Part shown: in pieces, positions 42,295 to 47,834 of the stretch | How positions within the stretch are numbered: position 1 is the first letter of the stretch | How the letters are laid out: each line of letters begins with the position of its first letter | Assembly: GCA_028689205.1 (NCBI GenBank) | Contig: JAQTWP010000001.1 | Location: 189,216-253,215 of the forward strand | DNA length: 64,000 nt | Origin: Candidatus Altimarinota bacterium | GTDB taxonomy: Bacteria > Patescibacteriota > Gracilibacteria > BD1-5 > UBA2023 | Direction of reading: 5' to 3' | Program-made: the position numbers and the translations under genes | Notes under the pieces: model-generated | Databases searched by the model: none | Seen by the model: the letters and a program-made list of their open reading frames with translations, nothing else | Told to the model about the DNA's origin: nothing

Positions 42295-43323
42295 ATGTAT
42301 TATAAAACTAATAAACTTATATTAAAAAAAATAATTTTTTTAATAATATTTCTTATATTACCATCATTGGTTTCTGCTAATGTATTAATAGAAACTAATG
42401 TTGATTGATACAAAATAAAAGCCTTAAAAATTGAAAGAAATACTTGATATAAAGTTATAGTTTGAGTTAGTGAAAAATGAGAATCTCTTGATTCTATGGT
42501 TAGTAGATATGGTTGAATAAGTTGAGTCAATTGAGCATATTTTTGTCCGGCAGATTATAAGGATTGTTGATGAGTAAATAAAACATGGGCTGACAGAATC
42601 AGTAATTGATATAATTGGAGCACAACTCCTAATGATACTGGCCCAGAAAGGGTAGTTTTTGCTCTGGATAAAAATCAAATTCCTTTTTTATATCAAAAAG
42701 CACATGACTATTCAAAATGAACAGATGATATTTTTCTTGTATGAAAAACTATCAATTTTGATAGGAAGTCAGATATTTATAATTGAATTGGTAATCATCC
42801 TCTTTTGCTTCAAGATTGAATAAATAAAATATGAGAATCTTGAGCAATTGACAATAAAATGGAATCTAAAAGTCTTAAGAATTTTATATGTTCAACTCAA
42901 GATGGAAATATTATTTATATGTGATGAGTAGAAAATGCAACAATATATCAAATGCCAGATATTCTAAAAAAATTAGGTTGTTATAATGCTATTAATCTTG
43001 ATTCTGGATGATCAAGTGCAATGATGTATAATAATAAATATATTCGCTGACCAGGAAGAAATATTATGGACGCCTTAATTATTATCCCAGATAAAAATTA
43101 TCCAATAAAATCAACAATTTCACAAGACCCAAAAATCCTAAAAGTCGTTGAGGCTTTCAAAAAAATTATAAATACAAAATTCGCTTCGCTTGATGATTTT
43201 ACACGTAAACAAAAATTATTCGCACTAAACTCAAAACTTAATTTGTTATCAAAAAACTCATCAGAAGCTAAAAAATCTTTCTATGAAGCCCTTATAAAAA
43301 CTGTTAATAGTTATATTCAATAA
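42295..43323 (+). CDS. Exported phosphodiester glycosidase-family (NAGPA) protein
   Basis: 342 residues: signal peptide (about 1-28), then a domain with GGISGVNGAYFCPADY, GNHPLLLQDG and a C-terminal NAINLDSGGSSAMMYNN block, which is characteristic of the NAGPA/DUF2233 fold (phosphodiester glycosidases acting on capped sugars or polysaccharides). The C-terminal 80 residues are helical and extra. Exported; likely acts on envelope glycans. Confidence 0.82.
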
Positions 43324-43389: not shown

Positions 43390-43824
43390 ATGCAAAATAT
43401 AAGTAAGTCACTTTGATTTTTTATTAATTTATCTAAAACTCAAACAATCTTATCTCGTAAATTAGATAGTAGTCTTGGTTGAATTAGTTTTATGGAATTT
43501 ATTATATTACTTAATCTTAGTCTTTCTCAAGATAATAAATTAAGAAGAATAGACTTAGCAGGGAAGATATGACTTACTGCATCAGGAGTTACAAGAATTC
43601 TTCTTCCAATGGAAAAGATTTGATTAGTTTCTCGTGAAATCAATGAAAATGATGCAAGAGTAAGTTATGTTATACTTGCCGCATGATGAAAAATGAAACT
43701 AGAAGAAGCAATGGAAAGAGCTGAATTATTAGTTTGAGATATTATACCAAATGAAGATATAACAAAAATGTGAGAATTCTCTGATTTATTGGTGAAAATC
43801 GGCAAAACAATAATTTGGAATTAG
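43390..43824 (+). CDS. MarR-family transcriptional regulator
   Basis: 144 residues with a winged helix-turn-helix: IDLAGKIGLTASGVTRILLPMEKIGLV and the wing SREINENDARVSYVILA. Dimer helices flank it. It ends by overlapping stops with the convergent lipoprotein gene (TAG 43822, complement of TAA 43821). Its target is unknown; the nearest palindromes were not convincing. Confidence 0.88.
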
Positions 43825-44968: not shown

Positions 44969-44997
44969 TTGACATTATTATAAAATATATATACTTT
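44969..44997 (+). promoter_or_regulatory. Promoter of the T-box/glyS transcript
   Basis: TTGACA (44969-44974) with TACTTT (44992-44997) at 17 bp, or TATACT (44990-44995) at 15 bp. Transcription would start near 45003. Confidence 0.65.
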
Positions 44998-45002
44998 ATT
45001 TA

Positions 45003-45241
45003 AGTAAAAAATTACTCTTTATAAAAAGGAAATATCTGGAAAATATTTCTATAAGATTAATTTTTAAACTAAAGTGTCTGGTCTCGTCTGCGAGAGTAGG
45101 AACTTGGGTGGAACCGTCCGCTTTTAGATTTAAGATTTAAGATTTAAGAATTAAGATTAAATAATAATCTAAGTTCTAAGTTCTAAGTTCTAAGCTCTAA
45201 TAAAGGACCCCAAGACTGAAATTTATTTTTAGTCTTTTTTT
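45003..45241 (+). promoter_or_regulatory. T-box riboswitch (tRNA-Gly), transcriptional, with ultrashort Stem I
   Basis: T-box core GGGTGGAACCG is at 45106-45116. Antiterminator: CTTGGG (45103-45108) pairs CCCAAG (45209-45214), GTCC (45116-45119) pairs GGAC (45205-45208), leaving the canonical 7-base bulge TGGAACC; TGGA pairs with a UCCA tRNA end, so discriminator U as in tRNA-Gly. The terminator AAGACTGAAA/TTTTAGTCTT plus T-run (45212-45241) shares AAG with the antiterminator, so the two exclude each other. Stem III is TCTCG/CGAGA (45082-45095). Stem I (45007-45065) is a short hairpin with a 7-base loop CTGGAAA that exposes GGA, a Gly codon. There is no Stem II, as in glyQS leaders. Confidence 0.85.
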
Positions 45242-45259: not shown

Positions 45260-45433
45260 ATGCTAACTTTGAAACAACATATAAGAAATAATTCATTCAG
45301 ACAATGACTTGATTCTTCTAGTATTAGGCATTCTGTTGATTTATGATGTTCAATTCAGCAAAAGGTTGTAAAGATTATCGAAGAAGATTTATCTTTTAGA
45401 TTCGTAATTGTTGATAAAAAAGCTAATAATTAA
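45260..45433 (+). CDS. Short ORF between T-box and glyS
   Basis: 57 residues, basic, starting MLTLKQHIRNNSFRQGLDSS and ending IVDKKAN-N. It lies after the T-box terminator and 38 bp before glyS, so it is under the same control. No family recognised; could be a real small protein or leader. Confidence 0.55.
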
Positions 45434-45471: not shown

Positions 45472-47004
45472 ATGGCAGTAGAAATGAAAGATATTGTCGA
45501 GCTTGCAAAAGCTAGATGATTTGTATTCCAGTGATCCGAGATCTATGGATGACTTGCTAATACTTGGGATTATGGTCCATACGGTTCAATCTTAAAAGAA
45601 AACATAAAAAATGCTTGGATAAAGAATTTTGTACAAGAAAGAACTGATATGGTTCTCCTTGATGCAGCAATATTCATGAATCCACAAACTTGGGTAACAT
45701 CTGGTCATGTATGATGATTCTCAGATCCTCTTACAGATTGTAAAAAATGTAAAACCCGTCACAGAGCTGATAAATTAATAGAAGATAGAAGTATTAACTC
45801 ACAAAATCCACTAAGTGAAGAATTTACTAGTTGGTTAGCAAAATTTATTAAAGATAATACTAAAAATATTGATATTCAAAAAAAGGCAATCGAAATAAAT
45901 AAAAATAAATGGTCAGAAACTGACATGAAAATAGCTAATGAATATCTAGAATACGCAGAATTAATTGAAAAAAATAAAGATAATAAAAATACAGTAGTTC
46001 ATTTATTTATGAATAAAAGTATTCCTTGTCCAGATTGTTGAGCAAAAGATTGGACAGAAATTAGGAATTTTAATCTGATGTTTGAAACTTTTCAATGAGT
46101 AATTAAAAATGAAGGTGATTTAATTTATCTTAGACCAGAAACGGCTCAATGAATATTTGTAAATTTTGCAAATGCACTAAGAACTAGCCGTAAAAAAGTA
46201 CCATTTGGTATTGCTCAAGTTGGTAAAGCATTCAGAAATGAAATTACTCCAGGTAACTTCATATTCAGAACTCGTGAATTCGAACAAATGGAAATAGAAT
46301 TCTTTTGTGAACCAGGTACAGATTTAGCTTGGCACGCAAAATGGAAAGAAGATTGTATGAATTTCCTTACTGATACAATTTGATTAAATAAGGAAAGTTT
46401 AAGATTCAGAGATCATAGTGTTGATGAACTTTCTCATTATTCAAATGCTACAACTGATATAGAATTCAAATATCCTTTTGGTTGGTGAGAATTACAATGA
46501 GTTGCTGATAGAACTGATTTTGATTTGAAGGCACATATGACAGAATCAAAACAAGATTTGAGTTATTTTGATACTGTAAATAATAAAAAATATATTCCTT
46601 ACGTTATTGAACCATCAATTGGTCTTACTAGATTGGTACTTGCAACTCTTCTAAGTGCTTATGATAAAGTAGAAACTGAAGAAGGTTCTAGAATTGTTCT
46701 AAGAATCAAACCTTCTCTTGCTCCAATTAAAATTGCAATTCTTCCAATAGTTAAGAAGCTATGAGATGAAGCAATGAAAATATTCAAAACTCTTAGTAAG
46801 ACTTGGAATTGTGAATATGACGAAACAGGGAATGTTGGAAAGCGCTATTTCAGATTCGATGAAATTGGTACTCCATATTGTCTAGTTGTAGATGATGCGA
46901 CAGTTAATAATTCTACAGTTACAGTAAGAGATAGAGATACTGGACTTCAAGATGTTGTAAAAGTTGCAGAACTTGAGGAATATTTCAGAAAGAAATTATG
47001 CTAG
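45472..47004 (+). CDS. glyS: Glycyl-tRNA synthetase (alpha2 type)
   Basis: 510-residue class II synthetase of the dimeric (archaeal/eukaryotic and Gram-positive) type. Motifs: [20 protein letters not shown] at the N-terminus, CKKC ... CPDC zinc pairs around an insertion, motif 2 [20 protein letters not shown], motif 3 [15 protein letters not shown], and a C-terminal anticodon domain. It has to charge tRNAs reading GGN and presumably UGA. Controlled by a T-box. Confidence 0.97.
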
Positions 47005-47054: not shown

Positions 47055-47834
47055 TTATAAAGCCTTAATAACTGTTCATCAAGATTGCATTGAATAATAA
47101 TGTTCTATAAGAGTTGAATGAATTCAATCTAGAATATGTACATTAATTCAATAACATATAGCAGATTTTGCAACTGCCACTTTTGATTCCATTCATCAAG
47201 TTCAATCCTCTGATTTTGATGAAAATTCAATGTTTGAAAAATCTCAATTTGCAATATAAGGAATTTGAAAAGCTCAAGATTCGTTAGGATTTTTATTATA
47301 AACTCAATTAGTGTTGGTTATAATCATAAGCGTTTTCGCTTTAACTAATTTTGCAACATATAATGATAATCTATCGTTATCTGCTTCTTTTCATACTTTA
47401 AGTAATTCTTCTTTAGTTAATGCATCATTCTCATTTATTATTGGAATTATTCAGTTGTCCAAATAAATGTTTAGAGTTTCTTTTAATGAATTAGATCTAC
47501 AGGCATTTTTCATATCCCAATGTGTAAGTAATAATTGTGATACACTATTTGTTCATAATTCATTAAATGCTTTTCTATATTCTGAAATCATTATTGTTTG
47601 TCATATTCAAGCACAAGCTTGAGCATATTTTATCTCATCAAGTCCTTCGGGTTTTTTAAATTCTTTTTTTCAAAGTCAAACAGCTCATGAACTAACTAGT
47701 ATAACTCAAATTCATATATTAATAAATGATTGAATATTCTCAATCATTGTTGCAACTTTTGGTTTTTTAATATCAAATACTCAATTTTCATTTAAGATTG
47801 ATTCTGTACCAATTTTAATAACAACTTTATCCAT
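47055..47834 (-). CDS. proB: Glutamate 5-kinase (ProB-like)
   Basis: 259-residue amino acid kinase fold without PUA domain. Motifs: VVIKIGTESIL, ILVSSGAVGLGK, IIPIINENDALT, EADNDRLSLYVA, ITNTNGVYNKNP and GTGGMESKVAVAKSA. It would phosphorylate glutamate in the first step of proline synthesis. No proA or proC lies near, so either they are elsewhere or the enzyme has another role. Confidence 0.88.

What the first reader, a model, noticed from the sequence alone, without database searches (positions are those of the whole stretch)
45003..45241. T-box riboswitch for tRNA-Gly controlling glyS in a UGA=Gly bacterium, with ultrashort Stem I
The sequence shows a complete T-box core: GGGTGGAACCG, an antiterminator with perfect stems CTTGGG/CCCAAG and GTCC/GGAC around the canonical 7-base bulge TGGAACC, and a 10-bp terminator sharing AAG with it. 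TGGA predicts a tRNA with discriminator U, which fits tRNA-Gly. Stem I is reduced to one hairpin with GGA in a 7-base loop, resembling the ultrashort class described for actinobacterial ileS leaders, but here transcriptional. T-boxes are mainly known from Firmicutes, Actinobacteria and a few other phyla; in a code-25 CPR genome it would couple GlyRS to the glycine tRNA pool that also covers UGA.
Basis: partly seen in the sequence, partly recalled or inferred. Interest (0 to 1): 0.9.

Follow-up and report, generated by a model that had tools for sequence, protein, structure and literature searches.

The report
Compact glycine T-box riboswitch in Gracilibacteria
The leader of this bacterium's glycyl-tRNA synthetase gene is almost certainly an RNA switch that reads uncharged glycine tRNA, and the same stripped-down type precedes synthetase genes across the Candidate Phyla Radiation, where we found no description of such switches.

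Summary
Confirmed and extended. Window 45028-45241 is a transcriptional T-box upstream of dimeric-type glyS in a code-25 Gracilibacterium. The element is present in 62 of 77 sampled genomes of the order by exact core (more by covariance model). In 63 aligned leaders, Stem I, Stem III and both antiterminator helices covary strongly. The Stem I apical loop always carries a glycine codon (GGA 42, GGC 12, GGU 5, GGG 2), and the UGGA bulge matches U73 of the genome's tRNA-Gly(UCC). Rfam's T-box model scores it 13 bits (cutoff 93).

A covariance model built here finds relatives in 59 of 380 genomes drawn across the phylum. 28 of the best 30 sit before a synthetase gene (thrS, glyS, valS, ileS, argS), many with a cognate apical codon and with the bulge base matching expected discriminators. 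Compact T-boxes are therefore widespread in CPR bacteria; no paper found in the held library reports this.

Two relatives (one is UBA2023) lack Stem I altogether: a promoter abuts Stem III. Others lack Stem III. The UGA=Gly link is incidental: the specifier reads tRNA-Gly(UCC), not the UCA tRNA, and other CPR orders have it. tRNA binding and attenuation are inferred, not shown.

The parts
44969..44995 (+). candidate promoter: TTGACA (44969-44974) and TATACT (44990-44995), 15-nt spacing
   Evidence: Read from sequence. Spacing is short of the usual 16-18, so one search did not list it; relatives have TTGACA/TATAAT-like pairs whose -10 mostly ends roughly 80-107 nt before the core. Tentative.
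45028..45050 (+). Stem I: GGAAATAT (CTGGAAA) ATATTTCT, 8-bp hairpin with apical specifier loop
   Evidence: equivalent hairpin with 90.8% cells paired and all 5 pairs changing on both sides in 61 distinct rows. Alone it is no more stable than shuffles.
45038..45040 (+). specifier codon GGA (Gly), flanked by U and A
   Evidence: TGGN in 61/61 Stem I loops: N = A 42, C 12, T 5, G 2 (the hairpin finder searched for TGG); tRNA-Gly(UCC) present in the genome.
45072..45076 (+). RRRxG purine motif (AAGTG) before Stem III
   Evidence: Motif as in PMC7583486; AAGTG 17, AGTTG 7, AAGAG 5, AAGCG 3, GAGAG 1, AGCCG 1 of 34 leaders with Stem III.
45077..45100 (+). Stem III (10 positions per arm, 9 paired, loop TCTG), followed by AA 45101-45102
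   Evidence: RNAfold MFE; base pairs 100% paired with both-side changes across 29 leaders.
45103..45108 (+). antiterminator helix A1, 5' arm CTTGGG
45109..45115 (+). T-box bulge TGGAACC; TGGA complementary to tRNA 3' UCCA
   Evidence: TGGAACC in 62/63 leaders, TGGGACC in 1; own tRNA-Gly ends UCCA.
45116..45119 (+). antiterminator helix A2, 5' arm GTCC
45124..45200 (+). A2 extension: imperfect AT-rich inverted repeat closing the 85-nt A2 loop (boundaries approximate)
   Evidence: RNAfold; relatives have A2 loops of 3-46 nt.
45205..45214 (+). antiterminator 3' arms: A2 GGAC (45205-45208) and A1 CCCAAG (45209-45214)
45212..45241 (+). intrinsic terminator AAGACTGAAA (TTTAT) TTTTAGTCTT + U tract; shares AAG with A1
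   Evidence: with the terminator included, the predicted fold loses A1.
45260..45433 (+). 57-aa ORF (code 25) between terminator and glyS, no Pfam family; probable operon member
   Evidence: an f3 relative seems to have a similar small ORF by eye.
45472..47004 (+). glyS, glycine--tRNA ligase, 510 aa, 12 in-frame TGA read as Gly
   Evidence: NF003211.1 631 bits and TIGR00389.1 502 bits, both over cutoff.

Best explanation
A compact T-box riboswitch controls transcription of glyS by attenuation. The nascent leader forms an ultrashort Stem I whose apical loop offers a glycine codon (GGA) to the anticodon of tRNA-Gly(UCC). If that tRNA is uncharged, its UCCA end pairs with UGGA in the T-box bulge, and Stem III with its flanking purines buttresses the antiterminator (A1 and A2). 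The terminator cannot form, because A1 and the terminator share AAG, and glyS is transcribed. If the tRNA carries glycine, the antiterminator is not held and the terminator stops transcription. Shown here by sequence: anatomy, covariation, glycine codon in the loop, discriminator match, terminator overlap, position before glyS. Inferred from the known T-box mechanism: tRNA binding, sensing of charging, the transcriptional outcome.
For: Core unique in the genome and conserved before glyS across the order. Covariation: 97.5% of cells paired, 137 both-side changes against 42 in shuffles, 0/500 (29 sequences); 240 against 76 (61 distinct rows); slid registers drop to 23-63%. Specifier always GGN. 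tRNA-Gly(UCC) with U73 in own genome and tRNA-Gly with U73 in 70/77 genomes of the order by pattern. Predicted fold matches; terminator z -4.3. Independent generality test: 28 of the 30 best model hits in other CPR genomes precede glyS, thrS, valS, ileS or argS (L230 called thrS by its N-terminal motif). There many apical loops carry the cognate codon (ACC or ACU for Thr, GTC for Val, partly by eye), and the bulge is TGGA for Gly/Thr and TGGT for Val/Ile/Arg. RF00230 itself matches several of them below its cutoff with E down to 1e-11. A purely sequence-based scan of about 85,000 species genomes gave 69 hits, of which 65 lie before glyS or thrS.
Against: RF00230 scores the window element only 13.1 bits, E 1.4. 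It lacks the long Stem I that transcriptional T-boxes are said to need and the Stem II that short-Stem I T-boxes are said to need (PMC7583486). The basal A2 pair is G-C in 50 of 61 distinct rows instead of the G-U wobble described as the sensor of the 3'-aminoacyl group. The Stem I hairpin alone is not unusually stable. The alignments were fitted to the structure, and linkers and loops were cut to fixed length. No expression or binding data.
Confidence: 0.93

Rival explanations
1. A T-box remnant: Stem I is a decaying or non-functional hairpin and the element acts only as a constitutive attenuator or terminator.
For: Stem I alone is weak in the window, and two relatives have lost it entirely.
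Against: Stem I pairs covary in 61 distinct rows and the loop codon stays GGN; bulge, A1, A2 and terminator overlap are conserved. A remnant would not keep a glycine codon whose third base alone drifts.
Confidence: 0.04
2. The loop codon is UGG and the ligand is tRNA-Trp, or the ligand is the UGA-reading tRNA(UCA), so that the switch senses something other than tRNA-Gly(UCC).
For: The base before GG is U in every loop, so UGG is always present; the genome does carry a tRNA(UCA) with U73.
Against: tRNA-Trp here has discriminator G and would need a UGGC bulge; the bulge is UGGA. UCA would need UGA, and the base after UG is always G. The regulated gene is glyS. In thrS and valS T-boxes of other CPR the loop codon is ACN or GUC, matching the regulated synthetase.
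Confidence: 0.02
3. Conservation reflects a different RNA regulator that resembles a T-box by convergence (for example a protein-binding leader plus terminator).
For: Low score against RF00230.
Against: In CPR relatives the bulge base tracks the tRNA discriminator expected for the regulated synthetase and loops carry cognate codons; RF00230 matches relatives at E 1e-11 to 1e-3, and one argS leader passes the cutoff.
Confidence: 0.01

Closest known systems
T-box riboswitch, Rfam RF00230 (canonical transcriptional, e.g. B. subtilis glyQS)
   Same: UGGN-ACC bulge between two antiterminator helices, RRRxG-Stem III-AA, terminator exclusive with the antiterminator, glycine codon followed by A, no Stem II (as in glycine T-boxes), upstream of a synthetase gene.
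   Different: No long Stem I (no elbow-binding double T-loop); codon in an apical loop; codon mostly GGA, where glyQS uses GGC; basal A2 pair mostly G-C; below Rfam's cutoff.
Ultrashort Stem I T-boxes (actinobacterial ileS; PMC7583486, PMC10651847)
   Same: Specifier in the apical loop of a short Stem I; other CPR members show K-turn-like GATGA/GGA flanks by eye.
   Different: Those act on translation and depend on Stem II and the IIA/B pseudoknot; here there is an intrinsic terminator and only 21 nt between Stem I and the Stem III motif, leaving no room for Stem II.
TBDB catalogue of 23,535 T-boxes (PMC7778990)
   Same: Would be the natural home of these elements.
   Different: Its short-Stem I model was run only on Actinobacteria and on truncated hits of the class I model, so compact CPR elements scoring below RF00230 would probably be missed; inference from its methods, the database itself was not searched.

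Membership tests
T-box riboswitch | 7-nt bulge UGGN-ACC between helices A1 and A2 | tested here: met
   62/63 TGGAACC, 1 TGGGACC; A1 and A2 covary.
T-box riboswitch | N of UGGN complementary to the discriminator base of the cognate tRNA | tested here: met
   A opposite U73 of tRNA-Gly(UCC); U73 is shared only with tRNA(UCA), Thr and Cys.
T-box riboswitch | Specifier codon for the regulated amino acid, in Stem I, followed by a purine | tested here: met
   GGA then A in the window; GGN in 61/61 loops. Absent in two relatives, L039 and L045.
T-box riboswitch | RRRxG-Stem III-AA motif | tested here: met
   AAGTG - 9-bp stem - AA in the window. Nearly half of the order's leaders lack the stem and keep AAAAGTAAAA.
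T-box riboswitch | Terminator mutually exclusive with antiterminator | tested here: met
   Shared AAG 45212-45214; fold with and without the terminator.
T-box riboswitch | G-U wobble at the base of A2 | tested here: not met
   G-C in the window; G-C 50, G-U 11 of 61 distinct rows. G-C also occurs in Thermoanaerobacterales glyS T-boxes, so this is variation within T-boxes rather than grounds for exclusion.
T-box riboswitch | K-turn at the base of Stem I | tested here: inconclusive
   TGATGA/GGA-like flanks in some relatives (L094, L096; L205, L208 in other orders) by eye; not evident in the window.
T-box riboswitch | Scores above RF00230 gathering cutoff | tested here: not met
   13.1 vs 93 bits; at most 32.7 in 20 relatives. 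A detection threshold, not a structural definition.
T-box riboswitch | Binds uncharged tRNA and changes read-through | not testable with these tools
   Needs in vitro transcription or binding.
Actinobacterial ultrashort (class II) T-box | Specifier mounted in the apical loop of a short Stem I | tested here: met
   GGA in the 7-nt apical loop 45036-45042; same place in relatives.
Actinobacterial ultrashort (class II) T-box | Stem II with S-turn and IIA/B pseudoknot | tested here: not met
   Only 21 nt between Stem I (ends 45050) and the Stem III motif (starts 45072).
Actinobacterial ultrashort (class II) T-box | Translational output (sequestered Shine-Dalgarno) | tested here: not met
   Intrinsic terminator with U tract; glyS starts 230 nt further on.

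The most novel reading that the evidence does not exclude
In two relatives of the same family (G113; and G210, which is Patescibacteria bacterium UBA2023, DDBV01000017.1) the glyS T-box has no Stem I. The upstream gene's stop codon abuts a near-consensus promoter whose -10 box ends 42 and 35 nt before the core, so transcripts should begin at Stem III. This would be a T-box that reads only the tRNA acceptor end (UCCA plus charging) and no anticodon, against the statement that all known varieties use a specifier. With many leaders lacking Stem III, the lineage would show the T-box being dismantled piece by piece while still in use.
Probability: 0.45. Interest if true: 0.85.

Novelty: new variant of a known kind. 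Interest (0 to 1): 0.75.

Why it matters
T-boxes are described mainly from Gram-positive bacteria and are catalogued with models that need a long Stem I. Here they turn out to be common in the Candidate Phyla Radiation, placed before several tRNA synthetase genes in bacteria with tiny genomes that are thought to take amino acids from hosts, so they give a direct handle on how these hardly cultured cells sense amino-acid supply. Mechanistically they break two working rules at once: a transcriptional T-box with an ultrashort Stem I, and a short Stem I without Stem II. The Stem I-less and Stem III-less members make the question of the smallest working T-box directly testable. A free third specifier base, where one tRNA-Gly(UCC) serves all GGN codons, suggests four-way wobble outside the ribosome.

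Tried and rejected
Rfam at gathering cutoff found nothing at the element. RF00230 on the own genome gave only two chance-level hits elsewhere. The first tRNA-Gly pattern was wrong by one base and was replaced. Exact-core hits in other families of the class mostly match the reversed-pattern control in number and were treated as chance, except G002 and G008 (upstream of glyS). Extra core copies in G079, G198, G210, G186, G113 and most in G243 lie in other contexts and were rejected. Model R1 missed the window's own genome because only 10 first-look candidates were scored and the 85-nt A2 loop lowers its score (26.2 bits); so 59/380 is a lower bound. A scan for promoters 26-44 nt before the core in 380 genomes found one hit, which carries no recognisable T-box flanks, so Stem I-less T-boxes of that exact form are rare. 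tRNA-Trp and tRNA(UCA) as ligands were considered and rejected.

Full report
OBSERVATION. RNAfold of 45073-45215 returns exactly Stem III, A1, the 7-nt bulge and A2 as the minimum-energy structure (z -4.1, none of 200 shuffles as good). With the terminator added, A1 is lost and the terminator forms. The downstream gene is glycine--tRNA ligase, 510 aa with 12 in-frame TGA codons; a 57-aa ORF without a known family lies between.

CONSERVATION. GGGTGGNACCG occurs once in the own genome. Across 242 genomes of the class, nearly all genomes of the own order carry GGGTGGAACCG on the same strand upstream of glyS; in the order, 62 of 77 sampled genomes have an exact core. Genomes lacking an exact match include some with variant cores that the covariance model finds upstream of glyS (G059: GCAGGTGGAACC; G131: TTAGGTGGAACC). 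BLAST in the fetched stretches places glyS from 79 nt to about 3.1 kb downstream, most often about 100-140 nt. Records in the named genome collection identify the order as Candidatus Gracilibacteria (for example CP042461.1).

COVARIATION. Sixty-three leaders were parsed; linkers and loops were cut or padded to fixed length so that arms align without gaps, a fitting that leans towards the structure. On 29 leaders with Stem I and Stem III, 97.5% of cells form standard pairs, 14 of 19 pairs change on both sides, and 137 cells carry both-side changes against 42 in shuffles (0/500). On all 63 (61 distinct rows), 95.6% and 240 against 76. Sliding the register by one drops pairing to 56-63%. The specifier loop is TGGN in 61 of 61 (the finder looked for TGG), with N = A 42, C 12, T 5, G 2: always a glycine codon.

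LIGAND. The own genome's detected tRNAs include tRNA-Gly(UCC) and a tRNA(UCA) (ARAGORN calls it SeC; in code 25 it would read UGA as Gly), both ending UCCA. Discriminator U is otherwise found only on tRNA-Thr and tRNA-Cys. A pattern scan finds tRNA-Gly(UCC) with U73 in nearly all genomes of the order and tRNA-Gly(GCC) in only about three. So the codon's first two bases are fixed and the third drifts, as expected if one tRNA with U34 reads all GGN. The loop does not match UCA (needs UGA) or Trp (its tRNA has discriminator G, needing UGGC). The specifier therefore most likely senses tRNA-Gly(UCC). GlyRS presumably also charges the UGA-reading tRNA, so the switch would serve recoding only indirectly; the same element exists in other CPR lineages.

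BEYOND THE ORDER. A covariance model from the 29 leaders (R1) was run on 380 genomes drawn evenly from the phylum: 59 hit at E <= 0.01, a lower bound because few candidates per genome were scored. Of the 30 best, 28 have an aminoacyl-tRNA synthetase as the downstream ORF: thrS 15, glyS 8, valS 3, ileS 1, argS 1 (L230 by N-terminal motif); the other two (L212, L219) carry threonine codons in apical loops by eye. Bulges are TGGA for Gly and Thr and TGGT for Val, Ile and Arg, in line with U73 and A73 (discriminators inferred from the Gracilibacteria tRNA sets). Apical loops carry ACC or ACU in many thrS leaders and GTC in the three valS leaders (several others read by eye). RF00230 matches 13 of 20 of these at E < 0.01, but only an argS leader passes its cutoff. 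A model-free pattern scan of the GTDB species collection gave 69 hits: 65 before glyS or thrS, in Gracilibacteria, Magasanik-, Kerfeld-, Uhr-, Gottesman-, Shapiro-, Woese-, Peregrini- and Parcubacteria plus Thermoanaerobacterales and Tenericutes, and 4 without a synthetase, all in Streptomyces, Amycolatopsis or Nocardiopsis genomes.

REDUCED FORMS. Nearly half of the order's leaders lack Stem III and keep only a purine run, AAAAGTAAAA, before A1; similar forms appear by eye in thrS of Magasanikbacteria and glyS of Shapirobacteria. Two leaders, L039 (G113) and L045 (G210 = UBA2023), have no Stem I: the upstream gene ends next to TTGACT-16-TATACT or TTGACA-17-TATACT, whose -10 ends 42 or 35 nt before the core, while in Stem I-bearing relatives the -10 mostly ends about 80-107 nt before it. 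Both keep Stem III, bulge, A1, A2 and terminator. Their tRNA sets show six U73 tRNAs (Gly UCC, UCA, Cys, three Thr), so acceptor-end reading alone would be only partly specific. Caveat: read-through transcription from upstream could supply other sequence; a weak 3-bp ATGGAAA hairpin lies in the upstream coding end of UBA2023 (by eye).

KNOWN OR NEW. In the review PMC7583486, all known T-boxes use a specifier, transcriptional ones generally need a long Stem I, truncated Stem I makes Stem II essential, and Stem III is called indispensable. The window element is transcriptional with an ultrashort Stem I and no room for Stem II; it is a T-box by bulge, antiterminator, specifier, discriminator match and terminator, and a new variant by architecture. 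TBDB ran its short-Stem I model only on Actinobacteria and on truncated class I hits. Literature searches pairing T-box terms with Gracilibacteria, CPR bacteria, Patescibacteria and Parcubacteria returned none, and with Saccharibacteria only unrelated papers; the library lacks most subscription papers and preprints, so prior description cannot be excluded.

Noticed in passing
L202-L231 (30 loci across the phylum): Compact T-boxes before thrS, glyS, valS, ileS and argS in many CPR families; one argS leader (L228) passes the RF00230 cutoff.
   Followed up: yes
L039 (G113:C21), L045 (G210:C13 = DDBV01000017.1, UBA2023): glyS T-boxes without Stem I: promoter directly abuts Stem III.
   Followed up: partly
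L048, L053-L060, L062-L064, L067, L069, L070, L103, L105, L107-L111, L113, L114: T-box leaders in which Stem III is replaced by a purine run AAAAGTAAAA.
   Followed up: partly
window 45124-45200: Imperfect AT-rich repeats forming a long hairpin inside the A2 loop, unlike relatives with 3-46 nt loops.
   Followed up: partly
window 45260-45433: 57-aa code-25 ORF between terminator and glyS, no Pfam match; f3 relative L048 seems to encode a similar small ORF in the same place.
   Followed up: no
L018:1501-1576 and L092:852-930(-): Single tRNA-Gly(UCC) plus tRNA(UCA) called SeC by ARAGORN; no tRNA-Gly(GCC) detected in this genome or in most of the order.
   Followed up: yes
window 47055-47834 (-): Amino acid kinase family protein (PF00696), possibly glutamate 5-kinase, convergent with glyS.
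   Followed up: no
window 42295-43323 and 43390-43824: NAGPA-type phosphodiester glycosidase (PF09992) next to a MarR family regulator (PF01047), upstream of the T-box region.
   Followed up: no
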